Assembly: GCA_022432975.1 (NCBI GenBank)
Contig: CM039502.1
Coordinates: forward strand, 29,631,133 to 29,695,132
Reading direction: 5' to 3'
DNA length: 64,000 bases
Source of the DNA: Begonia masoniana
Lineage: Eukaryota > Streptophyta > Magnoliopsida > Cucurbitales > Begoniaceae
The number at the start of each line of letters is the position of its first letter. Within the stretch, counting starts at the first letter, position 1. The notes under the pieces were generated by a model. It was not told the origin of the DNA, did not search any database, and saw nothing but the letters and a program-made list of their open reading frames with translations. Positions 1,779 through 57,139 of this stretch are shown piece after piece. Both the position numbers and the translations under genes were made by a program.

Positions 1779-4143
1779 TGTCACAACCCGAAACCCAACA
1801 GGTCGAGAATTTCGTATAAACATATTCGTAATCAAAATGTCAACCCAAATTCTCTTTTTTTTATAAATAAATACATTTTTAAAGAAATTCCAATCAAATT
1901 CGGAGACGTTTAAAAATCATTTGGGGAAATGTCTATTTAAAGAAAGAATTAATAGACAATCAAATTAACCTCTGTTGTTTACATCTACCACTCATTTCTA
2001 TCGAGCGTCATCCACCGCTCAACAGTAAAAATCTCACATCTACCGATGATGTCAGACCACGTGTTACCCACGTGCTTTCATTAACTCAGCAGATGACATC
2101 CACCGGTGAATATTAACACCCTACATCCATCGATCACAAAATGACAAAACTCGCAAGCCACATCTACCGATCACAAAATGACAAAACTCACAAGCCACAT
2201 CTACCGATCACAAAACGACAAACTCACAAGCCACATCTACCGATCACAAAAGGACAAAACTCACAAGTCACATCTACCGGTCACAAAACGACAAAATTTT
2301 CTACTTACATTTACTGATCGATAACACTCACTGAATACATCTACCGCTCAGACCACGTGTTACCCACGTGATTTCATTAACTCGGCAGACGACATCTACC
2401 ACTCAACAGTGATGATAATCAACATCTACCGACCAATAACACTTATTGTATACATCCATCGATTACTGGTTGAAGTTGACATTTTAAAACTCTGTTCTTC
2501 TATAAACTCACCCCTTTAATGAAAATCCCCAGACACATAAACATCGAAAATTCTTAACTTAAATACGTAGCGGAAGACTTAGAGAAATCAAATGAACCTT
2601 TAGTCTTAAAATCTTCTTTAAACACGAAACTGTATCAAACAATCCCAGTATTCTTCATCATAAGAAAACATCATCATACTCATGTTTCAATATCTTAGAC
2701 CTTACTAAAAACATATTACGAGCAACACACCACGGGTTAAAATCGTTCCTCAGCCACAAATCATCGCCACGAGCATCAACCAGCAACTAGACCTAAGCAT
2801 TTTCTTCTAGAGTGAAGTCCTCACCAGTTGTTTCGTCATCTACATCATAAGGTTCAAACTATAAGCCTAATACTTAGTAAGGAGTGCAACAAATACATGC
2901 ATTCTCAATAAAATCATGTTCACATCTCTTACTTAAATCAGAAATCATGCTTATGTCCTCATTCATTTTCAAATCGTGGGAATCATATACTTGTTCATCA
3001 TTTTCATATCATGGATTAAGGAGAAGTTTGTGCCGAAGGGGGGTAGGCAGAGTGCGTGTACATGGCCCATACGGGCAAGAATCATGGTCCATCCCTGGAC
3101 AGTGACATGGCCAATACCACCCCCAACCCTCACTTAATCAAGGTTTCATACGTTTCGTTTTCTTGTTTCATTTATAAAGGAGTATGCGTGTAAGACACTT
3201 TGTATACTCTGTAAATAAATTATGATGCATGAATATAATCATTCTCAAAACATGAGACCATGGAAGGAGTCGTTCATCAGAAAACAGAGCATACACTATT
3301 TCAAATATTATACTAAAACAGACAACTTCTCAAACATAATCGAATATCAGAAACAACTCAACCTACTACCCTTGTGATGCAGGGCCCTAATGGCTAGAAA
3401 TCTTAACACACTCACTTACTTGGATCCCTTAGCAATGTCTTTCTTCACTTGGAGCTTTTTCCCACCTAAGTCATTTCACGTATTAATGTAAGAAAACAAA
3501 TCCTAAGTAGTCTAATATTCTAGAATGGTAGCTCTCTAGCTAAATATATATCCTAGAAGTCTAACTCATTTCCATTCGAGCATTATATCAGTCACCTAGT
3601 GTGCATAAAACCCTCAGCTAAACGATACTGTTGTTCGGGTTCACCAACTACCCAGGCTCAGCCAACATTCATTATTTCTACTTATTATCTACGACAAATC
3701 ATAAATGCTATGTTAATAGCTATTTCTACTATGATACTTCAACTTCCTCAGAAAACTCGAATCTAAAACTCTAATCAACTCTTAAATGACTAATCAGTAA
3801 ACGCATTGTCCAAGTCTTACATCGAGCTTGGAGAATCGGAAGAAATTTAAAGGGAGTCAATCGCTGGAGGAAGAACAGAGAAAGGAGCTGAGGGGAAAGA
3901 GAGTCGGCTGAAAGGGGAAAGTGAGCTGAGGGAGGTTTTTGTGAGGTTTTAGGATTTCCATTTTCTATTCATACACTATTGAGCTAGGCCTATTTACAAG
4001 TTTGCCACCAAACCTAATTTTATAAAAAGAGCTGATTAAACTTTGGCGCCTAAATTTTTGACCAAGGAAATGTATGCATGGATGGCAGTTAATTCAGTTG
4101 CGTTAAAAGAAAGTTCACCTGCCTGAAGTTGTCGGGTGTTACA
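1779..4143 (-). repeat. 5' LTR of element A (family 1)
   Basis: The minus-strand copy ends at 4143 with sequence matching the start of element B's LTR (minus strand TGTAACACCCGACAA...), and its other end (TGTCACAACCCG at 1779) abuts the primer-binding site. Length is 2365 bp against 2282 bp for B's 5' LTR. It holds the shared spliced-leader layout (5' splice site near 3817, GATGTAG 3' splice site near 2850) and a 37-bp tandem repeat. The bases after 4143 (CACCT) should be the target duplication, but the partner lies outside the window. Confidence 0.88.
2131..2300. repeat. 37-bp tandem array in LTR of element A
   Basis: About 4.5 units of 36-37 bp, each carrying ATCACAAAA(T/C)GACAAAA and CACATCTACCG. 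The CATCTACCG and GATCAC words recur in the arrays of families 1 and 2 elsewhere in the window. Flanking sequence (2030-2130, 2300-2470) carries scattered degenerate copies. Confidence 0.85.
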
Positions 4144-6901: not shown

Positions 6902-8828
6902 TGTAACGTCCCAAATTAACCCTAATTTGAAATTTTTAATTTTTTTTCCCAATTTGATTTTATAAATCAGATTTAATTTCAAACATTATAACCATAATTT
7001 CTAAAATTTAAAAAAAAAAATTGAATGAAAACATTAAATGCACGGAAGTTTAAAACAATGTTCAATCATTAAATAGATTTGGTCAAAATGAATGCAGAAT
7101 TAAAACCATTCATAAAATTTTATCAATAATGAAGTCAACATAAATCATTCTAAATTTCCACCGAAATAATTTATGAAATATTCCCAAAAACTTGAAACAT
7201 ACTAATTTAAATTACTTCCTCAAATATTATCTTTTTCTGTATGTTCGCTTGCCTCTAGAAGGTTCTCGATCATAGTTAATTCTTCCTTAGGTAAAAATTT
7301 ACCTACATCACAAAATTATAAAACTATGAGAATAACTTAGTAAGCGAAAACATTAACTTTTACTGAATGCTGTCTTAACAGTTACATACTGGTTGAAACT
7401 CATTTTTCAACATTCGTTCAGACTTAATCATCTCATTGTCATTCAGGCTTTGTCATCTTACTTTCGTTCAGAAATAGTCATCTCATTGTCGTTCAGGCGT
7501 AGCCATCTCATTTTTGTTCAAGTATAGTCATCTCATTGTCGTTCAAACTTTGCTATTACATAATTTCTGTCAATTCCACCATGTTCATACGCATACAAAA
7601 TGTCCTACCAATTTTATCTTTATACAATTCTGTCAATGTCTAAACATGCGTGATCAAATATCAAAATCATATAATAAAATAATTATAAGAAAATAACATA
7701 GATTTTCTGATGTATGACCATAGCCAAAACGTTGAAAACATGGTATTTTCACTTACTTGGATTCCGAGAGGATAGGGTTATCGAGTTTTTTTTGGTATTC
7801 CAAATAATTTCCTGCCTAAATAAAATATTGGTATTAAAATCTCACTTAATTAAATCCTATTTTAGAAGAATTTAGGCAGAAATTCCTTACGTGTGCTCTT
7901 AGATCGGATAGGGTCGAATTAGATCGATTATGATGACTTTCAGAATCTTCCTACTTAAACAAAATATTCGATATTAATTTTTCACTTTAATAAATTTATT
8001 TCACAAGGATTTATGCAGAAATTCATTACCAGTTTATTCTTGGATCGATTCAGGTCAATCAGGTCAAAATTTGGGTCGGGTCAGTTTAGTTGGACCGGAT
8101 CTGGTTTGATTGGACCGAATTTGGCTTGGTTGGGCCAATTTTGGATTGTTGGACCGGTTCGGTTGGACCACACCTAAGTGAACCGGTTCAGTTTTAAAGA
8201 AAATTGGACTCTTCTTTCTCCTTCCTTCTTCTTCGCGATTTTCTTCACCCTTCTTCCTCGGCTGAAACAAAGACAGAGTGTGTTTCTCTTCTTGGTAAGA
8301 GCTGTTGCACACCAAAGAGATTTCTTCGTGTTGGAGAATGATCGTCGTGTCAGAGAGGGTTTGCTGGAAAGATGTCTGAATCTCTCCTGTTTGAGGAGTT
8401 TCACGGCGTTTTGAGGTCGAGTTGTGGTTGAAGATAGAGGTAGGAGTCTTTGAACTCGAGAGGTAGAGAGAACTGCTGTGACTTCATCCTTCGCTGAGCC
8501 TCTCTATTTATAGCAGAGGCCCGTACCCCGCTCCTCCGAGAAATCCAAGTTCAGATATGATTTTTTCAGCTGTAAGTTGTTCAGCTCAGATTTTCAGAGC
8601 TATCATCTGCTTCTCGGATTTCCAGAGGAGAAGCTGACTGTTGTTTTCCCCAAAATCCGAATTCAGCTCGGATTTGCTGAGTTGTAACATTATCGGATTT
8701 TCAGACGGTTGAACGTTGATATGTGATTTTACCTTGTTTTTTATCTAATTTTCAAAGAATAAATCCGAGATTAGGTTTGACTTGGTTTGATTTGGGAAAT
8801 TTTGAATTTCGAACCCTAAAATGTTACA
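6902..8828 (-). mobile_element. Solo LTR, Ty3-like, in SIRE LTR
   Basis: Bounded by TGTAACG... and ...GTTACA, 1927 bp, with a near-perfect target duplication (GCTAA at 6897-6901, ACTAA at 8829-8833). The flanking SIRE sequence joins across it when compared with the copy near 6020. No internal coding region, so it is a solo LTR. On the minus strand it has the same leader layout as the other LTRs: GTAAGTGAAAAT near 7755, a CATACATCA word just after it, TTACTAAG near 7340 and GATGTAG near 7310. It has no large tandem array. Small ORFs at 8064-8414 lie in its pyrimidine-rich first-exon region and are not credible genes. Confidence 0.8.
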
Positions 8829-9006: not shown

Positions 9007-9296
9007 TGTAACACCCGACAATCTCTGCCAAGTGATTTTCTTAACGGAATTAACTGTCACCTTTATTATTAATACTTGAATTTAATTTTAATGCCAAGGT
9101 TTATTTGGTTTCTAATTTTGGGGTGGCAAAATGGTAATTAGGAAGGATCTTACTAATGTAAATAGAAAATGAAAACTTTAAACCTCACTTAAACCCCACT
9201 GTAGCCGACATTCTCTCTCGGTGATTCCTGTGCTTCCAGAGCTTTTTCTCTGCCGACGATTCCCTCTTTGGCAATCGATTTCTCCCTACATTCGAG

Positions 9297-10306
9297 GTAA
9301 GATTTAGTCAATGTAGCTGCCGTGTAGTTGTTTGGAACTCTGTTTTCAACTAGAACCCAATGTTTCAAGATTCTTCAATGGCCAGATAATAGGAACATTT
9401 TTATCGGTGTTTGGTAATGGCATTTCCAAATCGATTCTGGACATTTAATATAACCGACCCTAATTAATCGTTAGTTGAACCCAGCTGTTTTGGTTTTTGA
9501 TTTCAGACTGCACACAGAGAACTAGACTAAGGGATTCGGAAATGACTTTAGTTATTAGATTCTAACATGATTTGTGATTAGGACTATTAGGAATTTTATT
9601 TTAACTACTATAATGTAATGTTTTAGGTGAAGAAGTCCAAAGAAAAGGAGCTCAAGTTGCTAAGGAAACCAGGTAAGTGAATGTGTAGGATTCCAGGCCA
9701 TTAGGGCCCTACATCATAAGGATGCTAGGTAGAAACTGATACGATGATTAGGAGTTATTTAAGCTATTGTCTGTTACTTATGTTGATGTTTGTTTTAAGT
9801 TAGTAAGATGGTTTGTACTTGGATGATTCACGGATGTTTGAGAACTATGTTATGTGATGTTCTGTTAGAGTCTATGAAGTCAACTGTCTAGTATGATAAA
9901 TTCCATAGTCTGATGATTTAAGAACATTCATGTCATGCATCATGATTTACTCCTCAAGCATATGAAAATGATTTATGAGCATGTTTTCTCCATGAACAAG
10001 ATATGAGAATGAATATGAAAACGATCCCATACAACATGATTAAGTGAGGGTTGGGGGCGGGTTGACGTATGCCACAGTCCAAAGAGGGACCATGAAAACG
10101 ACCCGATAGAGAATATGATCAAAATCACTGTCAACCCCCCTTTTACGGCACAAATCCTCCCTTAATCCATATGATGAAAACGATGAATAGAAACAAGAAT
10201 GATAAATGATCAAGAACATGTTTTTCTCAACTGTACATTCATGAATACATGTTAGTTTGCATTCCTTACTAAGCATTAGGCTTATAGTTTAAACCTCATG
10301 ATGTAG
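9297..10306 (+). other. Candidate two-intron leader in the 5' LTR of element B
   Basis: Intron 1 9297-9626: donor TTCGAG/GTAAGA, acceptor GTTTTAG/GTGAAG. Exon 2 9627-9672 (46 nt). Intron 2 9673-10306 (634 bp): donor CCAG/GTAAGTG, a GGGCCCTACATCA word at about 9703, TTACTAAG branch-like site about 35 nt before the acceptor GATGTAG/GTGAC. The same order and spacing recur in the LTRs of the other families. Splicing itself is inferred. No transcript data are available here. Confidence 0.5.
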
Positions 10307-10353
10307 GTGACGAGTTTTCAGGTGAGGATCTCAAAGTCAATGAGGATGTTTAA
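10307..10353 (+). other. Candidate last coding exon: 15-residue acidic tail (GDEFSGEDLKVNEDV) in LTR
   Basis: Starting after the GATGTAG acceptor, 47 nt run to a TAA. With the last G of exon 2 they read as GDEFSGEDLKVNEDV and stop, and exon 2 is open in the same frame. In element A the matching 47 nt keep D-E--GED and differ largely at third positions, with TAG instead of TAA. In family 2 (44929-44975) and in element D (family 3) the stretch is also exactly 47 nt. No ATG is found in frame in exon 1, so translation would need an upstream or non-AUG start. Could be chance. Confidence 0.35.
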
Positions 10354-11292
10354 GCTCGGTTGCTGGAAGGTGCTCAGGGTGGAGATTGGTGGCTGGCAGG
10401 CGATATTGACCCGCGGTTATGCTCACATTAAGTAAGTAAGGTTTATAAAAGACTGAAGTCTGTGTAGGATGAGATTTCTTTTTACAACATTGGGATTTTG
10501 GGATTTGTCTATTTGATCTCTGAGTTCGAGGAATGATTTAAGTTTATAGAATGATCTGCTTAATTAAGTCTTCCGTTTCACGTATCTTGAATGAGTCTAT
10601 GATTTTTATTCGTTTAAAGTATATGCCTATCAAGTTGAAATCTATGAGAGTCGGGTACCTTTCTGTTGGTTGAAGTTGTTTGATGATTATCGTGTTTTCT
10701 ACTGAGTGATAGGAGTCGGATAAGTGTATCATCCGACTGACGTCATCGGCGGTTGTCGAATGATAGAAGTTGAACGATTGAGTCTTCCGGCTGACGTCAT
10801 CGGATGATGTCGAGTGTTTACTCACCGGATGATGTAAGTAAAGTATTTAGTCGTTTGTTCACCGGATGAAGTCTCCTGTCGGATGAGGTAAGTAAGTCAC
10901 GTGCATTGCACATGTCCACCGGATGATGCCCATGTCTACCGGGCGATGTAGGTGTTTTCTTTACCGGATGATATAAGTAATGTTTTTTCGTTTAGTAACC
11001 GGGCGATGTAGGTGTTTTCTTTACCGGATGATATAAGTAATGTTTTGTCGTTTAGTGACCGAGTGATGTTTTAATTAGACACGTGAAACGCCTGTGTCCG
11101 CGGGCAGATGTGTAATGTATTTCGTTGCTGGGCGATGCCTAATGAATCACGTGTGATGTCTTGAACTAAGTTATGATTTAAAAGAAAAATATAGAAAAAT
11201 AAAAAGGGAGAGAACAAAGGAATGTAAGGATATATGGTCAATTCTAAAAGAGTCATGGTTTAGTTTCGGCCCTACTGGGGTCATTACAATTA

Positions 11293-11304
11293 TGGTATCA
11301 GAGC
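11293..11304 (+). other. Primer-binding site of element B
   Basis: TGGTATCAGAGC, complementary to initiator-Met tRNA, four bases after the LTR end at 11288. Confidence 0.92.
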
Positions 11305-11449
11305 AAAACCGGGTTTTAAAATCGATTCTGCAGACTGCCTCATAGCACAGATTGCCACCTGAGTACACTCCAACAACTGTAAGTGTTTATGATTTTAGTA
11401 ATGTCATTAAGTTAAGATATGTTATGATTATTTTCTTAGGAATCCCAAA

Positions 11450-16066: not shown

Positions 16067-16849
16067 AAAATGGAAACCTTAAACCTCACTTAAACCCCAC
16101 TGTAGCCGACATTCTCTCTCGGCGATTCCCGTGCTTCTAGAGCTTTTTCTCTGCCGGCGATTCCCTCTTTGGCGATCGATTTCTCCAGCCTCCACTCTGA
16201 TAACCTACATTCGAGGTAAGATTTAGTCAATGTAGCTGCCGTGTAGTTGTTTGGAACTCTGTTTTCAACTAGAACTCAATGTTTCAAGATTCTTCAATGG
16301 CCGGATAATAGGAAAATTTTTATCGGTGTTTGGTAATTGCATTTCCGAATCGATTCAGGACATTTAATATAACCGACCCTGATTAATCGTTACTTGAACC
16401 CAGCTGTTTTGGTTTTAGATTTCAAACTGCACACAGAGAACTAGACTAAGGGATTCGGGAATGACTTTAGTTATTAGATTCTAGGATGATTTGTGATTAG
16501 GACTATTAGGAATTTTATTTTAACTACTACAATGTAATGTTTTAGGTGAAAAAGTCCGAAGAAAAGGAGCTCAAGTTCTAAGGTGTAGCGCCCCAAATTA
16601 TATAAACCCAGTTCGTTACTCATAGCTCGAACATAACTAAGAAACTTTGGACTAAATTTAAAACTTCGCTCGACAGTCGAAATTTGACATTTTCTAAAAC
16701 CTCAAAACATTTAAAGACTTGCAGCGGAAATCATTTGAGCGAAAATGGAGTTAAACGCATCTGCCGCTGAGCAAAGTCAACGGAAGAGGCTGAAACATAT
16801 AGAAAAAAGACTTCTTCCGGTGACTAAACGACAAAAGCTTCAACTACAT

Positions 16850-18103: not shown

Positions 18104-18862
18104 GCCGTCAGCCAGATGATTTCCTTCATCTGATCGACAATCCTCACATCCACCAGTGACGTCAGCCGGATGATTTCCTTCATCCGATAGACTAACCTCA
18201 CATCCACCGGTGAACTTTATTCACCTATGATGGAACTTACAAACTTCACTCAAAGCATTCAAAACAACCAGACCCCAAATAACATTTGAAATTCAACAAA
18301 TAACCATTAACAAAAGAACAACATCTGTATCCTCGACATGACTTCGAAAATGATAAACTCCAACTGCATTTAAATCACGTTTTCTTGGCAGAGAGGAAAT
18401 TCCAAAGGTATCAAACATCAAATAACTACTAAGACTTCACCTACGGCCACTAGTTAACACACCAACAGAAGACTTCACCTACGGACAAGTGTTAAAACCA
18501 ACAGAGTACTTTTATCAGAAAGTCTCAAGGGAATGTATCCAAAAACATTAAAATCATTTCTGTCATTAGAAAACTTAACATACTTAAATCAAATCATAGC
18601 TCACTGAATCTTCACTTCTTCAGACACCAATTAATCCGCCTCATCAGTATACCAAATCGAGGCAGGGAAGTGCTCCTCCAACTTCACCTATTCTTCAGCG
18701 AACTTAGTAAACACACCTGCTGTCACTTCTTCACCTACATCACAAAACTCATATATTAGCATAATGCTAAGTAAGTAAAGCAGTAATGAAATGAAATGCT
18801 GATATCTGAATTCCTAAACATGCAATTTCTACTTTCTCATCTCAGTTGTCGTTCGTTCTTCA

Positions 18863-19090
18863 GATCCCCCTGTGAAATTGGGAGTTGGATCAATTCTCCC
18901 AAAGTATAAATATCCACTGACTCATTAAGGGGCGGATTATTTCTCTTAACAGTAATCTGATTCACATAGCTGTTTCCGATCCCCTTTGAAATTGGGAGTT
19001 GGATCAACTCTCTCAAAGTATAAATATTCACTGTCTCATTAAGGGGCGGATTATTTCCCTTAACAGTAAATCTGTTTCGTATAGTTGTTT
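18863..19090 (-). repeat. 115-bp tandem duplication inside the LTR of element C
   Basis: Two units starting at 18863 and 18978 (GATCCCC...GAAATTGGGAGTTGGATCAA...TTAAGGGGCGGATTATTTC). The same pair exists in the 5' LTR (about 25898-26115) and in the family-2 solo LTR (about 44580-44795), always within the candidate intron 2. Each unit can form self-complementary pairings such as GGGAGTTGGATC with GATCC. Confidence 0.75.
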
Positions 19091-19783
19091 CATTATGTTC
19101 ATTCCTTACCATGCTAACATGCATTCAAATTCATTTTCGTATACTTTTAAAACATGATGCATAATATACAGACACATTCAAATAAACATATTCATAATGT
19201 TTTGTGATGTAGGCCCGAAGGCGCAAGCAAACTTCACTTACCTGGTCTCCTGGAAATTGCTCAGTTTCAACTACTTTGGAAGCCCTGTTCACCTAATGTC
19301 ATAAACAAAATATCATTCAGATCTTCACTAAACTTCATCCTACACCATTCACAAACCTAAGGAGCTAGTTTAGAAGTTCGGATCATCGCACATTCTTGAT
19401 TCAACACTAACCCGAACTCAACTCACTCATAGCATTCTCAAAAATACACTTATTGCACTCTCTCTGCTATCTAGCCACTAAATCTCGAGAAAACGAAGGG
19501 AAAACTTACCTAGTTTGAGGAAATGGAGATCGGAGGGGAAAATCACCTGGAGCCCTGTTGAGCTTGAGCTGAATACCGAGAAGGAAAAATGAAGGAACAG
19601 TGGCGGCTAAACCTCAGTAAACCTTTCCTTAAATACGTTATCCACAATAAATTTCAATTTACCATTTTATCCTTACTCGTTCACTTATTAACCTAATCAC
19701 TAAATCACTCAAATTTCAAATTTATATTAAAACATTCTCTATAAATGGAAAGGCAAATCGGTTAATAGACACCGGGTGTTACA

Positions 19784-19800
19784 ATCTACCCTCCTTAAAG
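19784..19800 (-). other. Polypurine tract of element C
   Basis: Minus strand CTTTAAGGAGGGTAGAT, directly before the 3' LTR boundary at 19783. Confidence 0.85.
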
Positions 19801-19817
19801 AATTTTGTCCTCAAAAT

Positions 19818-24438: not shown

Positions 24439-24450
24439 TCTCTGATACCA
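24439..24450 (-). other. Primer-binding site of element C
   Basis: Minus strand TGGTATCAGAGA, matching initiator-Met tRNA at 11 of 12 positions of the plant consensus, three bases inside the LTR boundary at 24454. Confidence 0.9.
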
Positions 24451-24453: not shown

Positions 24454-26819
24454 TGTAGCGCCCCAAATTATATAAACTTGGTTCTTTACTCATAGCTCGA
24501 ACATAACTAAGAAACTTTGGACTAAATTTAAAACTTCGCTCGACAGTCGAAATTTGACATTTTCTAAAACCTCAAAACATTTAAAGACTTGCAGTGGAAA
24601 TCATTTGAGCAAAAATGGAGTTAAACAAAACCATAGAACAGTGCTTGAATAATTGGTTGGGATGTTAGGGAAAAATCGGTCAAAAGAAATAAAGGTTTAA
24701 ATCGCGAAATACTTTAAAAGTTGCAACGGTCAAACGCATCTGCAGCTGAGCAAAGTCAACGGAAGAGGCTGAAACAGATAGCAAAAAGACTTCTTCCGGT
24801 GACTAAACGACAAAAGCTTCAACTACATCATCTGGTAAGCTTAACACACGACATCCACCGATCACTAAACGACAAGACTTCTACTACATCATCCGGTAAG
24901 TTTAATACACGACATCCACCGATCACTAAATGACAAGACTTCTACTACATCATCCGGTAAGCTTAACACACGACATCCACCGATCACTAAACGACAAGCC
25001 TTCTACTACATCATCCGGTAAGCTTAACACACGACATCCACCTATCACTAAACGACAAGACTTCTACTACATCATCCGGTAAGCTTAACACACGACATCC
25101 ACCGATCACTGAATGACAAGCCTTCTACTACATCATCCGGTAAGCTTAACACACGACATCCACCGATGACGTCAGCCAGATGATTTCCTTCATCCGATCG
25201 ACAATCCTCACATCCACCGGTGATGTCAGCCGGATGATTTCCTTCATCCGATCGACTAACCTCACATCCACCGGTGAACTTTATTCACCTATGATAGAAC
25301 TTACAAACTTCACTCAAATAATTCAAAACAACCTGACCCCAAATAACATTTGAAATTCAACAAATAACCATTAACAAAAGAACAACATCTGTATCCTCGA
25401 CATGACTTTGAAAATGATAAACTCCAACTGCATTTAAATCACGTTTTCTTTGGCAGAGAGGAAATTCCCAAAGGTATCAAAACATCAAATAACTACTAAG
25501 ACTTCACCTACGGACAAGTGTTAAAACCAACAGAGTACTTTTATTAGAAAGTCTCAAGGGAATGTATCCAAAAATATTAAAATCACTTCTGTCATTAGAA
25601 AACTTAACATACTTAAATCAAATCATAGCTCACTGAATCTTCACTTCTTCAAACACCAATTAATCCGCCTCATCAGTATACCAAATCGAGGCAGGGAAGT
25701 GCTCCTCCAACTTCACCTATTCTTCAGCGAACTCAGTAAACACACCTGCTGTCACTTCTTCACCTACATCACAAAACTCATATATTAGCCTAATGCTAAG
25801 TAAGTAAAGCAGTAATGAAATGAAATGCTGATATCTGAATTCCTAAACATGCAATTTCTACTTTCTCATCTCAGTTGTCGTTTATCGTTTCTGTTCAGAT
25901 CCCCCTGTGAAATTGGGAGTTGGATCAATTCTCCCAAAGTATAAATATCCACTGACTCATTAAGGGGCGGATTATTTCTCTTAACAGTAATCTGATTCAC
26001 ATAGCTGTTTCCGATCCCCCTGTAAAATTGGGAGTTGGATCAACTCTCTCAAAGTATAAATATCCACTGTCTCATTAAGGGGCGGATTATTTCCCTTAAC
26101 AGTAAATCTGTTTCGTATAGCTGTTTCATTATGTTCATTCCTTATCATGCCAACATGCATTCAAATTCATTTTCATATACTTTTAAAACATGATGCATAA
26201 CATACGGACACATTCAAATAAACATATTCCTAATGTTTTGTGATGTAGGCCCGAAGGCGCAAGCAAACTTCACTTACCTGGTCTCCTAGAAATCGCTCGG
26301 TTTCAACTACTTTGGAAGCCCTGTTCACCTAATGTCATAAACAAAATATCATTCAGATCTTCACTAAACCTCATCCTACACCATTCACAAACCTAAGGAG
26401 CTAGTTTAGAAGTTCGGATCATCGCACATTCTTGATTCAACACTAACCCGAACTTAACTCACTCACAGCATTCTCAAAAATACACTCATTGCACTCTCTC
26501 TGCTATCTAGCCACTAAATCTCAAGAAAACGAAGGGAAAACTTACCTAGTTTGAGGAAATGGAGATCGGAGGGGAAAATCACCTGGAGCCCTGTTGAGCT
26601 TGAGCTGAATACAGAGAAGGAAAAATGAAGGAACAGTGGCAGCTAAACCTCAGTAAACCTTTCCTTAAATACGTTATCCACAATAAATTTCAATTTACCA
26701 TTTTATCCTTACTCGTTCACTTAATAACCTAATCACTAAATCACTCAAATTTCAAATTTATATTAAAACATTCTCTATAAATGGAAAGGCAAATCGGTTA
26801 ATAGACACCGAGTGATACA
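24454..26819 (-). repeat. 5' LTR of element C (family 2)
   Basis: 2366 bp. Minus-strand candidate introns: 26545-26329 (donor CTAG/GTAAGTT, acceptor ATTAG/GTGAAC) and 26277-25764 (514 bp, donor CCAG/GTAAGTG, acceptor GATGTAG/GTGAAG). The 47-nt tail after the second acceptor ends in a stop (GEEVTAGVFTEFAEE). Exon 2 of this copy has an in-frame TGA. Tandem array 24829-25165. Confidence 0.92.
24829..25165 (-). repeat. 61-bp tandem array, about 5 copies, in the 5' LTR of element C
   Basis: Same unit as at 16850-18103, with more base changes between units (for example TTTAATACACG, CACTGAATGAC). It is the short partner of an array that has about 20 copies in the other LTR. Confidence 0.92.
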
Positions 26820-28096
26820 TAAGGAAACCAGGTAAGTGAATATGTAGGATTCCTGGCCATTAGGGCCCTACATCATAAGGATGCTAGGTAGAAACTGATT
26901 CGATGATTAGAAGTTATTTAAGCTATTGTCTGTTACTTATGTTAATGTTTGTTTTAAGTTAGTAAGATGGTTTGTACTTGGATGATTCACGGATGTTTGA
27001 GAACTATGTTATGTGATGTTCTGTTAGAGTCTATGAAGTCAACTGTCTAGTATGATATATTTCATAGTCCGATGATTTAAGAACATTCATGTCATGCATC
27101 ATGATTTACTCCTCAAGCATATGAAAATGATTTATGAGCATGTTTTCTCCATGAACAAGATATGAAAATGAATATAAAAACGATCCCATACAACATGATT
27201 AAGTGAGGGTTTGGGGCGGGTTGACGTATGCCACAGTCCAAAGAGGGACCATGAAAATGACCCGAAAGGGAATATGATCAAAATCACTGTCAACCCCCCG
27301 TTTACGGCACAAATCCTCCCTTAATCCATATGATGAAAACGATGAACAGAAACAAGAATGATAAATGATCAAGAACATGTTTTTCTCAACTGTATATTCA
27401 TGAATACATGTTAGTTTGCATTCCTTACTAAGCATTAGGCTTATAGTTTAAACCTCATGATGTAGGTGACGAGTTTTCAGGTGAGGATCTCAAAGTTAAT
27501 GAGGATGTTTAAGCTCGATTGCTGGAAGGTGCTCAGGGTGGAGATTTGTGGCTGGCATGCGATATTGACCCGCGGTTATGCTCACATTAAGTCAGTAAGA
27601 TTTATGAAAGACTGAAGTCTGTGTAGGATGAGATTTCTTTTTACATCATTGGGATGTTGGAATTTGTCTATTTGATCTTTGAGTTCGAGGAATGATTTAA
27701 GTTTATAGAATGATCTGTTTAATTAAGTCTTCCGCTTCACGTATCTTGAATGAGTCTATGATTTTTATTCGTTTAAAGTTTATTTCTATCAAGTTGAAAT
27801 TTATGAGAGTCGGGTATCTTTCAGTTGGTTGAAGTTGCTTGATGATTATCGTGTTTTACTACTGAGTGATAGGAGTCGGATAAGTGTATCATCCGGCTGA
27901 CGTCATCGGCGGATGTCGAATGATAGAAGTTGAACGATTGAGTCTTCCGGCTGACGTCATCGGATGATGTCGAGTGTTTACTCACCGGATGATGTAAGTA
28001 AAGTATTTAGTCGTTTGTTCACCAGATGAAGTCTCCTGTCGGATGAGGTAAGTAAGTCACGTGCATTGCACATGTCCACCGGATGATGCCCATGTC

Positions 28097-35318: not shown

Positions 35319-36320
35319 AGTTACTACACCTTCAGTAATAGAGAATTTTGAAGGAGTGAGAGTGTAACACCCGGTATTTTTGCCATGTAGTAGTTTTCCC
35401 CGATCATTTAATCGGGATTATTATTATATTAATACAAAGGAGTGTTTTGGTGGAACTGTTGGAATAATTGTGGAGAACTAAACAAAACATTAAGTCTAAA
35501 ATGCATGGGAAGGCAATTTGGAGAGAAATTAAGGTTGGTGGGAGTGAGCCAATAGTTGAATGACATCTGGCGACTTGATGAAGAAGCTAAGTCTTCCTCC
35601 TACGTGAAACCCTCACTTCTCATCTGTTTCTTCCCACTGCTCTTTGTTTTCTCTTCCTGGCGATTTTGACAAAGCACCAACACTTTGTTTCCTCGTTTTT
35701 CTTCTGTTTCCTTCAACCAAGGTAATAATCTACGGAAGTTATTGATTTTGGATAAGTTTAATGCGAGTTTTCACTGGGGTTTAGGGTTATTAATTCTGTG
35801 AAAACTCACTGTTTTGAATGAAAATACGTTAGTGTGTTTTCCTAATGAGTTGAAATGAGCTTGCTGCATATTCTACAAGTTATTTGTTAGCATTTGCAGC
35901 TTGTTTAATTTCTCTACATTTCAGCAACAGATCCGAGCGTTCCAGGGACATTCGAGCATTCTACACTGCAGCAAACAGGTAAGTTCATAACTGTAGGTTG
36001 GCCCTTAAGGCCCTACATCACGGAGGTACTAGGTTTCCTGTTCTGTCGGGTTGTTTTTGTGTAGAAAGGATTATAGTTTATGTTCTGAAATGTCTGGCTT
36101 CGATTTACCTTCTGTTGTCTTATTTCTGCTGTGTGCCTGTTTAAGTTCAAGCACCGTTCATGCATACACGTTTTCTCTGAAAGACATGCAAATGTTTTCT
36201 GTACACTGTTTGAAACTAAACAAGATAAAATCCGACTGAAATGTACCAGGTTAAGTGCGAGACGGGGACTGGCCCCTGAACTGTTTACTGTACTGTATCC
36301 CTGAATGTGCCTGATAGTGC

Positions 36321-36341
36321 ACCCCCCCCCCCCTCCCCCAC
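36321..36341. repeat. Poly-C tract
   Basis: CACCCCCCCCCC then CCCTCCCCCAC within the candidate intron 2 of the family-3 solo LTR. Confidence 0.9.
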
Positions 36342-37557
36342 TTTTTGCCAGTTCCCCTATAAGCTCCACTTAATTCTACTGCCACTGTAACTTAATGCTC
36401 TGTACTGTTACCGTATTTCTGAAAAACTGCATGCATAGCATTTTGCATCACTGCATTCTGATTATGTTCTTACTGAGTTTTAGACTCATAGGTGAACTCT
36501 CTGATGTAGGTACTGAACATGAAATCGAGGACCTTGTTCCTCAAAATGATGATCTGATGTAATGGTGGATCGAGCTCACAGGGTGGTTGCTGCAGTTAGA
36601 CACAATTTTCTGTCCCGAGGTTTAAGTCTTAGTCTTTTAAGAAATGTTCATATCTGTAAAATCTTCTGAAATTCTGGTGTGTTTATTTTAAAACTCTGTT
36701 GAGGTCCTGTGTTTTGTCTTAAAAACTCTGTAGGAAATTCTGTTGGACGTATATATAATGTATAAGTTCTGATGATCGAGTTTCAAATCTCTGTTGACAG
36801 TTGTTAGTTGTTTCCTGTGAAATGTCTTGAAAACATTCTGGAACTGCTTGAGTTCTCCCTTTTCAGGTCATGCATGGATGGTCTCGAATTTTAGAGCTAT
36901 CCATGCAGTTTGTTTTCTTGAAATCTGTCATTTGTAATGAAGGTCTGAAACCTGTATGCCTTCTGTTGTGCTCGAGAACCATGTTTTGAATTGGTTTGAG
37001 AATTTAAGACTTTCATGTTTTTTGTTCCTTAAGCTCTCTGTCTATATGTTTTCTGTTAAAAGTTGTCAAATTCTGCCCCTTTTAAACTGCATCTTCCGAT
37101 CACGTTTAATGCATCCACCGATAGTCACTGTCCACATTTTGTCTTATCTCATCCACCGGTGAACAGTTGATTTCATCAGTCTTAGTTACTTCTGCCGGTT
37201 TCATCTGTCTCTCAGTTTAACTTCATCTTCCGACGACATCATCTCCTCTTCCGATGACGTCACCATAGCTTTTCTTCTGCCGATTACGTTTACTGCCTTT
37301 ATCTGCCGATGACGTCATCACATCTTCCGATGACGTCATCACATAATTTGATTTCGTTTAATGTCTGCATCTACCGTCTGACGTCATCTCCTCTTCCGAT
37401 GACGTCATCCACTGTTTTCATCTCCTGCCGATTTCGTTTAATGCATACATCTTCCGGTGACGTCATCTATCTTCCGATGATGTCATCACCTTCTGCCGAT
37501 TTTGTTTACTATCTGTATCTGCCGATGACATCTTCACATTTTCCGGTTGACACCATC

Positions 37558-41919: not shown

Positions 41920-44900
41920 TGTGAAAACCCCCGACCCGATCAGGGTCCGAGGAGCCATCACTCCAGACATTTTACAGAAAACGAGACTATTATTATTTTT
42001 TTGAACATTATACTTTTAAAACATTGACAGAGAGAGAGAGTGTTCTCTGGAGTAGAAATCATAACGGGAAAGAAAACAGCTAAAACCAAACTGCAGGATG
42101 AATTACAGAATACTTAAAACAGAATCAGAAGACATGTACAATTTTAAACCACAGAAATAACAGACCGAAGAAAACAGGGAGACAGATGTAAACTAAACTT
42201 TGGACATTTAGAATATCAGGCAAGGAGAAATCTGAAGAGTGCAGGAAGGAATGTAAAAAGAATCTGAATAACAGTTTTAAATGGCAGCAGAAAACAAAAA
42301 ATAAAGGCGAAAGACATAGGCAAAAGACTGGTGGGAAAAATCTATCGGATGATGTAGTTTTGAAAGTAGAAGCAGAGATGACGTCCGTCGGAAGATACAG
42401 GCAGCAGACGAAATCGGATGAGGAGATGACGTCAGCTGGAAGATGGATGACGTCAAGGCGGAAGACATAGGCAGCAAATGAAATCGGATGAAGGGATGAC
42501 ATCAGCCGGAAGATGGATGACGTCAGCTGGAAGATACAGGCGGCAGATGGAACCGGAGGATGTAAACAGTGGGTGACGTCATCAGAAGAGGAGATGACGT
42601 CAGACGGAAGATGCAGGCAGCAGATGGAATCAGATGAGGTAAACAGTGGGTGATGTCATCGGAAGAGGAGATGACGTCAGACGGAAGATGCAGGCAGCAG
42701 ATGGAATCGGATGAGGTGATGACATCAGCCGGAAGATGGATGACATCAACCGGAAGATACAGACATTAAACGTAATCGGCAGAAGAAAGCCTAAGGCAGA
42801 AACACTGTTTGGCAGTGGATATGAATAAGACAAAATATGAATAGTATCAATCGGTAGACATAGTTTCAAAGGCAAAATTTACAACTTTTGACAGGAAGAC
42901 ACACAGACAGAGAGCATAAAACAGAAGACCTAAAAGTCTCAGATTCTCAAACCACTTCAAAACATGGTTCTTGAGCACAACAGAAGGTATAACAGAAACT
43001 TAAGAATAATCACACTGCATAGATAGCTCAAAAACCCGAGACCATCCATGCATAGACTAACAGAAAATATTCCAAACCATTTCAGAATACTTCAGAACTT
43101 AATCCAACTGTCAAATACAGCACAAACAGAAGGCATGAAAGTTGTAGACCTTCAATACCCGATTCTAAACAAGGTTGTAGAACATACTTTACAATTGACA
43201 GATTCAAAGAAACAGACTGCATGGATAGTCCTAAAACCAGAAGTCATCCATGCACAAACTGACAGAAAATATTCCCAAACAATTCCAGAACATTTAGAAC
43301 ATGAATTCAACTGTCAAATACAGTAGTTTTTAAAACTTAAACATCAAAATCTGTGCATTGTTTTAAAATCTAAGGATCAGTACAGAACCTAACATTACAA
43401 AATTCCCAGCAGAGTTTTTAAACAAAACACAGGACTATAACAGAGTTTTAAAACAAAACACCAGAATTCCAGAAGAGTTTACATATATGAACTCTACTTT
43501 AAAGACTTAAACCTCAAGACAGAAAACTATGTCTGGCTGCAGCAACCACCCCGAGAGCTCGAACCACCAACCACCTATTCATCAGACTGAGGCACAAAGT
43601 CCTCATTTTCGGGTTCAGTACCTACATCAGGGAGTTCACCTATGAGTTTAAAACTCAGTAAGAACATATATAAATGCAGTGATGCGTATGCTATGCATGG
43701 ACTTTCAGAAATACGGTGACAGTACAATACATTACATTTCAGTGGTAGAGGGGTATAAGTGGAGCTTATAAGGGAACTGACAATCAGTAGAATCAGTGAG
43801 TGCACAATAGGCACATACAATAATACAGTATACATATATATAACTGTACAGTAACAGTGGGTCCGTCCCTGTCCCGCACTGTAACACGCGGTTCTATCGA
43901 ACCAGCTCTCTTTTATTGTAAATGGTATAAATTTTATTAGGCAATAATTAAAGTAGGGTTATTGAGTGACTAGACAAGGGTATAAGAGTAAATTGGAAAT
44001 TTCAAAAGTGGATAACCTATTTAAGGGAAGGGGTTTAGCGATTTATGCACTGTAGCCGCCACTGTTTCATCATTTATTCCTTTTCGATATCCAGCTCAAG
44101 CTTAGGGAGCCCTGGGCGATTCTTCCACCAGATCCTTATTCTATCTAGGTAAGTTTTCCTCATTTCTTATATTTTAGCAGTAAGATAGCCGATGGAGTAC
44201 AATGTGAGGATTTTGAGGATGCTGTAGGTGAGTGTTAGTTTCGGTTTAGTGCAGTATCGAGAATGCATTATGACCTGAGTTCTCAAATTAGTTTCCTTAG
44301 GTTTCTGGTTGACTAGGATGAAGTTTAGTGAAGGTTTAAATAATGTTCGGTTTATGGATTTAGGTTTGAGCAAGTTCCCGAGGGAGATTTCAACCAAACT
44401 TTCCAAGAGACCAAGTAAGTGAAGTATGCTTGTGCCTTCGGGCCTACATCACAAAACATTAGGATTTTGTTTACTTAAATGTGTCAATATGTCATGCATC
44501 ATATTTTAAAAGTATACGAAAATGAATTTGAATGCATGTTGGCATGGTAAGGAATGAACATAATGAAATAACTATGTGAATCAGATTTACTGTTAAGAGA
44601 AGTAGTCCGCCCCTTAATGAGACAGCGGATATTTAGACTTTGGGAAACTTGATCCGCTTCCCATCGAACAGGGGGATCAGAAACAGCTATGTGAATCAGA
44701 TTTACTGTTAAGGGAAGTAATCTGCCCCTTAATAAGTCAATGGATATTTATACTTTGGGAGAAGTCATCCAACTCCCAATTTCACAGGGGGATCAGATCA
44801 GAACGATGCATATACAACTAAGATGAGAAAGTAGAAACTGCATATTTAGGAATTTATGATTCAGCATTACATTACATTATTGCTTTACTTACTTAGCATT

Positions 44901-46835
44901 AGGCTAATAGATGAGTTTTGTGATGTAGGTGAAGAAGCGACAGCAGGTGTATTTACTGAGTTAGCTGAGGACTAGGCTGGTTGAAGGAGTGCAACTTTGC
45001 AATAATCTGGTAGTTGATGGGGCGGTTTAACTGATGTCAGTTGGTGTGAAGGTTTAATTGACAATGTTTCAATTTAAGTATGTTGGATTTTCATGACAGT
45101 AATAGTTTTAATGTTTCTGAACTCATCTTGAGATTTTCTTCCGGACAATTATACTCTGTTAGTGTTAATAGTGGTTTTACTAGATGTTGGAGTAGTGACC
45201 AAATTTAAGTGGTTTTGAATGAATTTTTAGTAAATTGCTCAAGTTCTCCTGGTAGTCGAAGTTTTCTTTGTTAGAGTGAAATTGTTATTGTCCTGTTGTC
45301 TATCGGATGATGTCTTCAGTATAGTTATCGGATAATGTCTTTAGTAAATCTATCGGATGATGTCTTCAGTATAGTCATCGGATGATGTCTTCAGTAAAGC
45401 CATCGGATGATGTCTTCAGTATTGTCTATCAGATGATGTAGTAAAGAATTTGTCGTCTAGTGATCGGCAGAGGCTGGATGAACGAATCATCCGGCTGACA
45501 TCATCGGTGGATGCGAGTAGCAAAACTTGTCGTTTTGTGATCGGTAGAGGTTGGATGAACGATTCATCCGGCTGACGTCATCCGGTGGAAACCTTCGGTC
45601 TATTTCTGCCCTTTTGTTGACTTCGCTCAGCGGATGATGTGTTTGACTTTTATGAACTAAGCATTTCACGCGTAAGCCATCGCCTCTTCCGGCCGAATTC
45701 TTTTCTTAATATTTTTTTTAACTGAATATTCGAACACTGTTTTATAGTTTTGCTTAACTTTGTTTTGCTCAAATGATTTCCGCTGCAATTTCTTTAAATG
45801 CTTTGAGGTTTTTGAAAATGTCAAATTTTGACTTTCGAGCGGAGTTTTAAATTTGGTCCGAATTTTTTTGTTATGTTCGGGTTTATGAGTAACAAACAGA
45901 GTTTGGGAAACTTGGGGGCGTTACACGCACTTAACCGGTTCATTTCAGTCAGATTTTATCTTGCTTAACTTCAAAACCGTGTACAGAAAATAGTTTTGCA
46001 TGAACTTTCGAAAAATCGTGTATGCATGAACATTTTCAGTGCTTACAATTAAAACAGCAGACAGCAGAAATAACACAACAAAACCTAAAGGAAAAACAGA
46101 CAACTCAGAATATAACTTCAACTTATCAACCCGAAACCTCTCGACAGTAGTAAAATCCTAGAGTCTCCGTGATGTAGGGCCTTAAGGGCCAACCTACGGA
46201 TATGAACTTACCTGTTTGCTGCAGAGTTGATGTTCTTGATCGTCTCGGTAATGCACAAACTTGTACATGCACGTAAGGAAAATAAACAAGCTGCAAATGT
46301 TAACTAATAACTTGGTAGAATCAGCAGCAACTCCTTTCAAACTCTTAGAAAACAACAACGTGTTTTCATCCAAAAACATTGAGGTTTTCACAAATATCGA
46401 AACTTTAAACTTCCACAAAACTCACATTTTCACTTTTCCAAACTTGCTAACTTAGCAGATCATTACCTTTACTGGAGAAGACAGGAGAATGGAAGTCTTT
46501 TGGAAAGGTTGAAATCGCCAGAAAGAGAGAAAATAGAGAGGAAAACAAGAAACAGAGAAGAGAAATGAGGATTTCACGTAGGAGGAAGAACATGGCTTCT
46601 TCAACAAATTGTCAAGTGTCAATCATCCATTGGCTTTCTCCCACCAACCTTAATTCCTTCCCAATTTACCCTTCCATTGGTTCTTGACTAAATTTGTTAA
46701 ATAAATTCTTCAACCTGGTTTTTCCATTAAACTCTCCGACAATTCATTAAAACATACATTAGATTTTATATAAAAATTCATCCCGCTAAATAATCCGGCG
46801 GAATAATTACAAGGGAAAAAATGCCGGGTCTTACA
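41920..46835 (-). repeat. 3' LTR of element D, split by a solo LTR
   Basis: Pieces 41920-43879 and 45926-46835, about 2.87 kb together. Left end TGTGAAAACCCCCGACCCG, right end CGGGTCTTACA. Its repeat zone (about 42340-42800) has degenerate 20-30-bp units with GATGACGTCAG and CGGAAGATG, unlike the 89-bp array in the 5' LTR. The exon-3 tail (43575-43621 on the minus strand) reads GTEPENEDFVPQSDE then stop. Confidence 0.9.
43880..45925 (+). mobile_element. Family-2 solo LTR
   Basis: 2046 bp, TGTAACACGCGG...GGGGGCGTTACA, perfect target duplication CGCAC (43875-43879 and 45926-45930). Same family as element C. Candidate introns 44149-44363 (donor TCTAG/GTAAGTT, acceptor GATTTAG/GTTTGAG) and 44415-44928 (514 bp, the same length as in element C; donor CCAA/GTAAGTG, acceptor GATGTAG/GTGAAG). 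Exon 2 (44364-44414) is open in frame with a 47-nt tail (44929-44975) that reads SEEATAGVFTELAED and stops. The repeat zone (45300-45640) has short CGGATGATGTCTTCAGTA units (about 5) and CGGCTGACGTCATC words. Confidence 0.9.
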
Positions 46836-56235: not shown

Positions 56236-57139
56236 AAAATTCATCCCGCTAAATAATCCGGGGGAATAATTACAAGGGCAGAAATGTCGGGTGTTACACT
56301 CTCTTCCCCACTCATTTTCTATTTTCGCAAAGGAGAAGCTCCAGAGAGCTTTGGGGCAATTTTTTCTCCCCCACGGCGAGTTCCTGCAAGCGCCGGCCAA
56401 TGTTCCTCCAAACCCCGGTGACTTCTTCATGTTTTCTTCAGCAATCGACATTCTAGGTAAACTTCTAGCGTTTGGATGATTTAGTTTCCCGTTTAGGGCT
56501 AGGAAACGGTTAAAACTTTAGTTAGGGTTTTGTTAAAAACGTAGATCAAGGTTTAAAATCGATAAGTTTACCCTGACCACGCCTCTAATGGATGTGTTGT
56601 TGGTTATTGGACATAGTTAGTCGATGTATTGATGAATGTTGGGGTTTGATTGTTTAGGCTCAGTTTTGGTAATGAATGTTGTGGATTGGCTTAGGTGAAC
56701 AAAGCTCGCGAATGGGGCTCGATGCGCTAAGGACAACAGGTAAGTTTTCGAAACTTTTTGGCCGATTTGGCCTACATCATGGATGAGCATTATTGATCGA
56801 GGATAATTGGTAAATTTGTCGTTTAAGTGTAGGTTGGATGGGTAGTTTAGGAGAATTGAATGTTAGAATGTTTTTAATTAGGTTCTATGTATTGTTTATG
56901 CTTTTCTTACTTTTATTGTATAAATCCATGTCCATGCATCATGTTTTACGAACTAGCATGAAAAATGAATTTCTGTAAATGTTTTTCATGAAAAGAAATG
57001 TTAAATGAAAAGATATGAAATGCATGTAATCCCAGTCAAGTCGGGGTGGGGTTCAGACATGGTTGTCCTGAGAGGAGAAGCATGTTTTCCCCCTGCAGAT
57101 GGAAAGGGCTATCTAACCGTGAGATGTGCCCTCTCTATC

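What the first reader, a model, noticed from the sequence alone, without database searches (positions are those of the whole stretch)
9297..10306. One two-intron leader layout recurs in LTRs of at least four retrotransposon families
Seen: LTRs with little overall similarity carry in the same order a pyrimidine-rich first exon, donor 1, acceptor 1, a 45-54-nt exon 2, a strong donor 2 (AG/GTAAGT), a branch-like TTACT(A/T)AG or TTACTGAG, and acceptor GATGTAG. Coordinates: element B 9297-9626 and 9673-10306; element C 5' LTR 26545-26329 and 26277-25764; family-2 solo 44149-44363 and 44415-44928; family-3 solo 35722-35924 and 35979-36509; element D 55929-55723 and 55673-55137; family 4 56457-56694 and a donor at 56740. 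Intron 2 is 514 bp in both family-2 copies. Inference: the LTR transcript is spliced upstream of gag. Spliced RNA, if copied, would give intron-less LTRs, so genomic RNA must escape splicing. That implies regulation as in complex retroviruses, but inside the LTR.
Basis: partly seen in the sequence, partly recalled or inferred. Interest (0 to 1): 0.88.

Follow-up and report, generated by a model that had tools for sequence, protein, structure and literature searches.

The report
Plant retrotransposon LTRs that are spliced
Several families of jumping genes in one plant genome carry two intron-like stretches inside the repeated ends they use to copy themselves, and one copy has lost exactly those stretches from both ends, so its RNA was most likely spliced before being copied back into DNA, whereas the other full copies examined keep them.

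Summary
In 58 further genomic copies 227 of 232 splice dinucleotides survive, against 91% for an average dinucleotide. Decisive test: a spliced exon2|exon3 junction is found at two places in the 795-Mb genome. They are the two LTRs of one element, which lacks the 217 and 507 nt that a 98%-identical sister carries as GT...AG stretches; 38 of 38 other listed relatives do not align across that junction. So the introns are almost certainly real, and copied spliced RNA is rare. My reading: the fold masks acceptor 2 and keeps genomic RNA unspliced (inferred). Against: no RNA data; the helix is not predicted in 2 of 9 copies; a strand-swap control is weak; one forecast failed in part; only one intron-less element is known.

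The parts
9007..11288 (+). Element B 5' LTR (TGTAAC...ATTACA), PBS-like TGGTATCAGAGC at 11293-11304
9297..9626 (+). B intron 1, 330 nt, GAG|GTAAGA...TTTTAG|GTG
   Evidence: GT kept in 27 and AG in 29 of 29 B copies
9627..9672 (+). B exon 2, 46 nt, no ATG, T 0.13
9673..10306 (+). B intron 2, 634 nt, CAG|GTAAGT...GATGTAG|GTG
   Evidence: GT and AG 29 of 29 B copies
9696..9708 (+). H1 hairpin GGCC-ATTAG-GGCC behind donor 2
9709..9721 (+). P2 left strand CTACATCATAAGG, complementary (one mismatch) to the acceptor-2 end
10265..10284 (+). CTTACT (possible branch site CTTAC) and H3 hairpin TAAGC-ATTAG-GCTTA (10270-10284)
10294..10306 (+). P2 right strand CCTCATGATGTAG, ends on the acceptor-2 AG
11379..11439 (+).
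16216..16545 (+). B 3' LTR intron 1
26832..27465 (+). B 3' LTR intron 2; element C is inserted in its exon 2 (16584-26819)
26329..26545 (-). C 5' LTR intron 1, 217 nt
25764..26277 (-). C 5' LTR intron 2, 514 nt; P2 strands 26248-26235 and 25777-25764 (14 Watson-Crick pairs)
19293..19509 (-). C 3' LTR intron 1, 217 nt
   Evidence: one search used a start one base off
18735..19241 (-). C 3' LTR intron 2, 507 nt
44149..44363 (+). F2 solo LTR intron 1, 215 nt
44415..44928 (+). F2 solo LTR intron 2, 514 nt; P2 44444-44457 / 44915-44928
35722..35924 (+). F3 intron 1, 203 nt
35979..36509 (+). F3 intron 2, 531 nt; P2 36013-36025 / 36497-36509
55723..55929 (-). D 5' LTR intron 1, 207 nt
55137..55673 (-). 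D 5' LTR intron 2, 537 nt; P2 55639-55627 / 55149-55137
43622..46211 (-). D 3' LTR intron 2 (donor 46211, acceptor 43622), interrupted by the F2 LTR at 43880-45925
3466..3820 (-). A intron 1, 355 nt
2840..3419 (-). A intron 2, 580 nt; P2 3382-3370 (with a G-U wobble) / 2852-2840
7303..7756 (-). S6 (LTR-like 8828-6902): intron 2, 454 nt; P2 7715-7703 / 7315-7303, weakest of the set
   Evidence: target duplication and intron 1 not examined
56457..56694 (+). F4 intron 1; exon 2 56695-56739, donor 2 at 56740, H1 and P2 left; the rest is cut off by an insertion
63678..63768 (+). E intron 1 (91 nt, acceptor CATGATGTAG); exon 2 63769-63820, donor 2 at 63821; intron 2 runs beyond the window (acceptor seen in L061)

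Best explanation
Plant Ty3/gypsy-type retrotransposons in this window carry, inside each LTR, two predicted spliceosomal introns; one sister element elsewhere in the same genome lacks exactly these two stretches in both of its LTRs, which most likely records a spliced transcript that was reverse-transcribed, and the second intron is predicted to fold into a conserved RNA domain whose closing helix would bury its own acceptor and so would keep part of the transcripts unspliced as genomes. Seen directly: the two-intron layout in B, C/F2, D/F3, A and E and, up to donor 2, in F4, with the intron-2 features also in S6; splice dinucleotides kept within two families; the exact double loss in both LTRs of one element; a helix (P2) and a pre-acceptor hairpin (H3) with changes on both sides. 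Inferred: that the host spliceosome removes both introns from LTR transcripts; that P2, which pairs the last 12-14 nt of intron 2 with a site 29-41 nt behind donor 2, lowers use of acceptor 2; that RNA keeping intron 2 is the form normally packaged and copied. How gag is translated from a leader still rich in upstream ATGs is not explained.
For: layout verified; extra copies; CAGGTAAGT 8 vs 0.36 expected; 58 genomic copies: 227 of 232 splice dinucleotides kept vs 91% background; both introns present in 58 of 58; intron-less element: two LTRs aligning over 1,410 nt at 98.1%, CACAC on both outer flanks; over the first 458 nt the sister L064 is identical at 449 of 457 aligned bases, 50 of 50 in the exon-2 block, with GT...AG insertions of 217 and 507 nt; of the 38 other places listed above the short blocks, 37 align only from nucleotide 314, the exon-3 start, and one from 713; 29 separate exon-2 blocks are listed. 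Structure: RNAalifold chose P2 and H3 itself; 96.7% of cells paired, 17 doubly changed cells vs 5.8 in shuffles, covariation score 0.338 vs 0.163, slid partners 31-49% paired; H3 on 10 sequences, two of them from outside the window: 98% paired, 8 doubly changed cells vs 2.9; P2 in the minimum-energy fold of 7 of 9 copies. Conservation of intron 2 between families: 0.88 in C5-F2, 0.76 in D5-F3, 0.66 in B5-A, against 0.46-0.70 for promoter plus exon 1, intron 1, exon 2 and LTR rest in these pairs.
Against: No RNA read was available. One intron-less element only; the B junction gave 0 hits and the D junction search did not complete. P2 is absent from the minimum-energy fold of A and S6 and has probability only about 0.55 in F3 and D5. 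Overall folding is not stronger than shuffles except in C (z -2.6, -3.0; the other seven -1.4 to +0.7). A helix as good as the best one ending on the acceptor arises in 0.3-3.4% of shuffles for B, C, F2, F3, D, 7% for A and 25% for S6, where the best helix is not at the P2 position. Swap control: C's left strand prefers C-type right strands (6 of 6 extension positions vs 1-2 with A, B, D), but with G-U allowed the left strands of A, B, D pair with C's right strand as well as or better than with their own (5 vs 4), so the fit is family-specific in one direction only. Two of five count measures do not beat the shuffles (pairs with a double change 40/500; further pair types 452/500), and the same two fail. 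In S6 the last base of the acceptor is unpaired. Intron 2 is not the most conserved part everywhere: exon 3's first 150 nt reach 0.81 in D5-F3 and tie in B5-A, and among the 29 C copies the intron-2 body (0.954) equals the LTR mean (0.954) and lies below intron 1 (0.971); in B it is 0.968 vs 0.952. I predicted E's acceptor as about CTCCATGATGTAG; it reads CTCTCTGTGTAG, so site and H3 are there but the P2 strand is broken. Introns are U-richer than exon 2 but not than the promoter-exon 1 stretch. Exon 3 keeps many ATGs, so splicing alone does not give a clean gag leader.
Confidence: 0.57

Rival explanations
1. The introns are real, but P2 promotes splicing: it loops out about 500 nt and brings acceptor 2 close to donor 2, against the many GATGTAG-like sites in the downstream minisatellites.
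For: P2 joins a site 29-41 nt behind donor 2 to the acceptor end; TGATGTAG is common in the window (51 vs 2.5 expected, 27 of them in the C minisatellites); intron 2 was removed exactly in the intron-less element.
Against: P2 covers the acceptor AG itself in the groups other than S6, which looping would not need; 58 of 58 extra family copies came from RNA that kept the intron.
Confidence: 0.18
2. Intron 2 is mainly a packaging, dimerisation or export domain of genomic RNA, like a retroviral psi that lies behind the splice donor; splicing removes it from mRNA, and P2 and H3 are its scaffold, not a splicing control.
For: Intron 2 as a whole is well conserved between families; central stems with different letters occur in B and F3 (GATTAAG/CTTAATC; GGTTAAGTG/CACTTAATT); intron-less copies look rare.
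Against: The one intron-less element was copied and integrated, so intron 2 is not strictly needed at least once, perhaps with help from siblings. The helix ends on the splice acceptor. Within the C family intron 2 is no more conserved than the LTR mean.
Confidence: 0.3
3. Donor 2 is mostly joined to the acceptor-like AG 10-15 nt before the gag ATG, making an ATG-poor gag mRNA without the PBS; acceptor 2 is a minor alternative held back by P2.
For: A, B, C and D each have an AG just before gag; exon 1 (approximate start) plus exon 2 carry no ATG in 6 of 8 copies examined; exon 3 and the LTR rest are full of ATGs.
Against: The intron-less element shows donor 2 joined to acceptor 2, with PBS and intron-3 sequence kept. 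A GTAAGTG donor lies just upstream of that AG in the same four elements.
Confidence: 0.15
4. The intron-less element arose by DNA deletions at short repeats, not by reverse transcription of spliced RNA.
For: Both stretches have TAGGT or AGGT at their two ends, so microhomology deletion is possible.
Against: Two exact deletions at both predicted GT...AG stretches, shared by both LTRs of an element with CACAC on both outer flanks, need several coincidences; one spliced RNA explains all, since both LTRs are made from one copy of the leader.
Confidence: 0.04
5. The motifs are conserved because they encode protein (LLS(I/F)RLI...DV... or the short exon-3 frame), not because of splicing or RNA structure.
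For: In the C and D groups the acceptor region is open in one frame; the exon-3 frame has excess third-position changes (19 of 36 in three pairs, p=0.012) and ends after 16-18 codons in all groups but S6 (28).
Against: A, B and S6 are out of frame between H3 and exon 3, yet their acceptor-side motifs remain; no in-frame ATG precedes the exon-3 frame, read unspliced, in A, B5, B3, C5 or S6.
Confidence: 0.05

Closest known systems
BARE1 (Ty1/copia, barley) spliced gag RNA, PMC3735527 (passages seen)
   Same: Plant LTR retrotransposon with separate RNA pools; part of the transcripts is spliced, the packaged RNA is unspliced.
   Different: One 104-nt intron in the coding region near the end of gag, not in the LTR; the RNA pools also differ by promoter and cap.
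EVD/EVADE short-gag splicing and Ogre gag-pol intron (review PMC12786077, passages; PMC6317226, passages)
   Same: Functional introns in plant LTR retrotransposons. The review says plant LTR elements generally lack introns and names these as notable exceptions.
   Different: Their introns lie in or between coding regions; here they lie inside the LTR, upstream of PBS and gag.
Foamy virus major splice donor in the R region (PMC3694450, passages)
   Same: A splice donor inside the LTR, with RNA structure thought to decide whether U1 reaches it.
   Different: One donor in R, poly(A) control via U1; here two complete introns per LTR and a structured acceptor. Poly(A) sites were not located here.
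Retroviral packaging signal placed behind the major splice donor (recalled, no call)
   Same: An intronic RNA domain would mark unspliced genomes.
   Different: Here the domain lies within the LTR, upstream of the PBS.
Complementarity inside yeast introns that changes effective intron length, e.g. RP51B (recalled, no call)
   Same: A helix between the 5' part of the intron and its 3' part.
   Different: There, as recalled, the acceptor AG stays free; here the helix ends on it.

Membership tests
Spliceosomal GT-AG intron | GT...AG ends, conserved among copies | tested here: met
   227 of 232 site-copies kept vs 91% background
Spliceosomal GT-AG intron | More U-rich than flanking exons, as in plants | tested here: inconclusive
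   7 LTRs: introns T 0.31-0.41, exon 2 0.13-0.22, but promoter plus exon 1 0.32-0.37 and exon 3 start 0.27-0.34
Spliceosomal GT-AG intron | Branch site 20-50 nt before the acceptor | tested here: inconclusive
   CTTAC is invariant in 9 of 9 copies of A1 but CTTGC in sister L064; it adjoins the hairpin arm
Spliceosomal GT-AG intron | Genomic footprint of exact removal | tested here: met
   exact loss of both introns in both LTRs of one element
Spliceosomal GT-AG intron | Spliced RNA observed | not testable with these tools
   no RNA reads on hand
LTR retrotransposon, Ty3/gypsy | TG...CA LTRs, PBS-like site, gag, protease, integrase-type domains | tested here: met
   (Retrotrans_gag, Ty3_capsid, RVP_2, SH3_Tf2-1 above cut-off; rve below its cut-off)
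Chromovirus (Tekay/Del-like) | Chromodomain behind integrase | tested here: inconclusive
   PF00385 E=0.0012, 19.1 bits below the 25.1 cut-off, in B; none reported for C; A and D not scanned for it
Chromovirus (Tekay/Del-like) | Placement in the RT tree | not tested
   no tree was built
BARE/EVD-type spliced gag | Intron within or near the end of the gag coding region | tested here: not met
   introns 1 and 2 lie in the LTR, upstream of PBS and gag
Ogre-type intron | Intron between protease and RT frames | tested here: not met
   the introns described lie in the LTR
Foamy-virus-type LTR splicing | Donor in R, upstream of the poly(A) site | tested here: inconclusive
   donors lie behind a TATA-like box seen by eye in B's 3' LTR and S6; poly(A) site unknown

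The most novel reading that the evidence does not exclude
An RNA switch inside the LTR: intron 2 folds on itself, buries its own acceptor and thereby sorts each transcript into genome (folded, unspliced, copied) or messenger (spliced, not copied), and intron-bearing LTRs are kept over generations because spliced RNA is nearly always excluded from copying. The exon-3 minisatellites, which in the C LTRs repeat TGATGTAG, might act as competitors for the masking strand.
Probability: 0.32. Interest if true: 0.92.

Novelty: new variant of a known kind. Interest (0 to 1): 0.82.

Why it matters
An intron inside an LTR is expected to be erased at the first cycle that uses spliced RNA, so its survival in large families means that the element separates messenger from genome. 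Here the erased outcome is seen once, exactly, in both LTRs, which turns the question into a natural experiment. It offers a plant system in which mRNA/genome sorting can be tested with short leader pieces, and it warns that LTRs could supply ready 5' exons and introns to neighbouring genes.

Tried and rejected
Rejected: TTACTNAG as the branch site only (N covaries with the other arm of H3: A-U, U-A, G-C). Rejected: motif conservation as coding (frames differ between groups). Rejected: acceptor 2 as a mere structural motif (exact loss). Forecast for E's P2 strand: failed in part. Void: (minus-strand loci had not been turned round); redone.

Led nowhere: viral and prokaryote collections gave no relative for the one motif and the one gag query tried. 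Rfam, at gathering thresholds, matched only 5S rRNA. Literature: the searches showed me, in listings and passages, no paper describing introns inside plant LTRs; they cover only this open-access library. Seven papers were seen as passages; the others as search listings only.

Not answered: D-family copy search; D exon2|exon3, B exon1|exon2 and own-subfamily exon1|exon2 junctions; the intron-bearing denominator pattern.

Full report
What was checked. Chance is not an explanation: the perfect donor CAGGTAAGT occurs 8 times against 0.36 expected, and all 8 are donor 2.

Conservation in the genome. The window lies in a 795-Mb assembly without a name. The B query had 13,034 first-look candidates and the C query 10,031, of which 40 each were scored. 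I aligned 29 further copies of each (L002-L030; L032-L060, which include the window's own second C LTR as L032) to the window copy (one search is void). The splice dinucleotides are kept in 227 of 232 site-copies, against 91% for an average dinucleotide of the same LTRs; intron-2 lengths are nearly constant (B 633-635, C 507-515). Splice and helix elements are mostly kept at 0.97-0.99, but B's acceptor-1 region (last 20 nt) is only 0.897, below the B mean of 0.952. These copies were chosen by similarity to an intron-bearing query, so they say little about how many intron-less LTRs exist.

The intron-less element. A 29-nt pattern made of the end of C-type exon 2 and the start of exon 3 (up to 3 mismatches) hits two places in the genome, both with 2 mismatches, and none with the reversed control. 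They lie 6,085 bases apart on one strand. Each is an LTR; the two align over 1,410 nt at 98.1%. By eye, one follows the end of a pol-like frame and the other is followed by a PBS-like site and a gag-like start; both outer flanks read CACAC, a possible five-base duplication in a CA-rich stretch. Exon 1 runs straight into exon 2 and exon 2 into exon 3. The sister LTR L064, the only sister fetched, was compared with the first 480 nt: it matches at 449 of 457 aligned bases, 50 of 50 over the exon-2 block, and has 217 and 507 extra bases exactly there; placed at the exon ends these begin GTAAGT and end in AG. With the intron-less LTR as query, 8,436 candidates were seen and 40 scored: its own two LTRs align end to end; of the 38 other long rows 37 begin at nucleotide 314, the start of exon 3, and one at 713; separate exon-1 blocks (most ending at 271) and 29 exon-2 blocks (most 264-317) are listed besides. 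The same junction test for B gave no hit. The simplest account is one RNA with both introns removed that was reverse-transcribed; copying then gave both LTRs the same spliced leader. Its intron-3-like stretch between PBS and gag was kept.

Structure in intron 2. Nine intron-2 copies were aligned. RNAalifold proposed P2 and H3 on its own, besides a small stem in the middle. P2 pairs CTACATCA plus family-specific bases, 29-41 nt behind donor 2, with the last 12-14 bases of the intron; one position inside it is left unpaired in the consensus. The core is nearly invariant; the extension changes on both sides together (AAGG/CCTT or CCTC in A and B, GGAG/CTCC or CTCT in D and F3, AAAAC/GTTTT in C). 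H3, between CTTAC and the acceptor, is TNAGY-5 nt-RCTNA with N forming A-U, U-A and G-C (not in S6). Counted pairs: 96.7% of cells form, 17 doubly changed cells against 5.8 in shuffles, slid partners 31-49%; two of the five measures do not beat the shuffles. On ten right-hand ends, two of them from outside the window, H3 forms in 98% of cells with 8 doubly changed cells against 2.9; the same two measures fail. A third hairpin, H1, sits directly before the P2 left strand with different letters in different groups (GGCC-ATTAG-GGCC, GGCC-CTTAA-GGCC, GCC-TTCG-GGC). Relatedness limits these counts: there are about four independent groups (A/B, C/F2, D/F3/E, S6).

Against the structure. P2 is in the minimum-energy fold of 7 of 9 copies; in F3 and D5 its probability is about 0.55, in S6 at most 0.25, in A zero. 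Only C folds clearly better than shuffles. Single-copy helix tests give p of 0.003 to 0.034 for B, C, F2, F3 and D, 0.07 for A and 0.25 for S6. In the swap control, the left strands of A, B and D pair with C's right strand as well as or better than with their own when G-U counts (5 against 4 of 6 extension positions), while C's left strand clearly prefers its own (6 against 1-2); family-specific fit is thus one-sided. My forecast for E's acceptor beyond the window was wrong in the P2 strand (a base missing and other letters), though the acceptor position and H3 were there.

An unusual intron. Between families, in C5-F2, D5-F3 and B5-A, intron 2 is 0.88, 0.76 and 0.66 identical, while promoter plus exon 1, intron 1, exon 2 and the LTR remainder are 0.46-0.70. 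The first 150 nt of exon 3 compete (0.72, 0.81, 0.66): intron 2 leads in one pair, ties in one and comes second in one. Exon 2 is the least conserved segment in two of the three pairs. Within families the picture is mixed: intron-2 body 0.968 against a mean of 0.952 in B, but 0.954 against 0.954 in C. Taken together this hints that intron 2 matters in RNA that keeps it (inference).

How it probably works. An LTR transcript has three exons before the gag region. If both introns are removed the RNA can still be copied, as the one element shows, but this looks rare. The element therefore keeps an unspliced pool. The fold of intron 2 is the best candidate for the cause: P2 ends on the AG of acceptor 2, so the folded form would hide it (inference). 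The rival that intron 2 is a packaging or export domain may hold together with masking. The looping rival is possible but does not explain why the AG itself is paired. How gag is translated remains open: exons 1 and 2 carry few ATGs (5 against 14.1 expected in eight copies, four of the five in F4; the exon-1 starts are estimates), but exon 3 and the LTR rest carry many.

What is known. A 2025 review states that plant LTR elements generally lack introns, with Ogre and EVADE as notable exceptions (PMC12786077, passages). BARE1 splices a 104-nt intron near the end of gag and packages unspliced RNA (PMC3735527, passages). Foamy viruses have a splice donor inside the R region (PMC3694450, passages). 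The sunflower elements Tyran and Varan show alternative splicing by direct RNA sequencing (PMC7730604, passages). Nine literature searches showed me no paper on introns inside plant LTRs; most subscription papers are not in the library. I file this as a new variant of a known kind.

Noticed in passing
47469-49194, minus strand: Four 5S-rRNA-like segments in units of about 450 bp (Rfam RF00001, 44-48 bits) lie inside element D's pol region, where homology to B's integrase breaks off.
   Followed up: no
16844-18071, 24823-25135, 28098-29213, 38030-39338, 57229-59263, 61367-63250: Large minisatellite arrays (periods about 61, 61, 60, 21, 27 and 54 bp); in the C LTRs 27 repeat units carry TGATGTAG, the acceptor-2 end; the window has 51 TGATGTAG against 2.5 expected.
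   Followed up: partly
11379-11439; also donors at 1689, 24370 and 53112 (minus): Elements A, B, C and D have CAACT|GTAAGTG just behind the PBS and an AG 10-15 nt before the gag ATG: a possible third, about 60-nt intron. In 6 B copies spanning it, GT is kept in 6 and AG in 5.
   Followed up: partly
10307-10354 and homologues: The start of exon 3 has a short open frame ending after 16-18 codons in all groups but S6 (28), with excess third-position changes (19 of 36, p=0.012) but no upstream in-frame ATG in A, B, C5 or S6 read unspliced.
   Followed up: partly
63759-63862: In E the acceptor of intron 1 also reads CATGATGTAG and is complementary over 10 nt to E's own P2 left strand behind donor 2.
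   Followed up: no
3419-2877, minus: In copy A the predicted fold pairs donor 2 (GTAAG) with the conserved CTTAC near the acceptor; the two motifs are complementary in all nine aligned copies.
   Followed up: no
46250-46270, minus: In D's 3' LTR acceptor 1 reads TACAAG where the 5' LTR has TACAG|G, which moves the AG by one base.
   Followed up: no
11450-12706: The closest protein relative of B gag (83% over 63%) is in a 790-base contig filed under 'bacterium 1XD21-13', probably plant DNA in a bacterial assembly.
   Followed up: no
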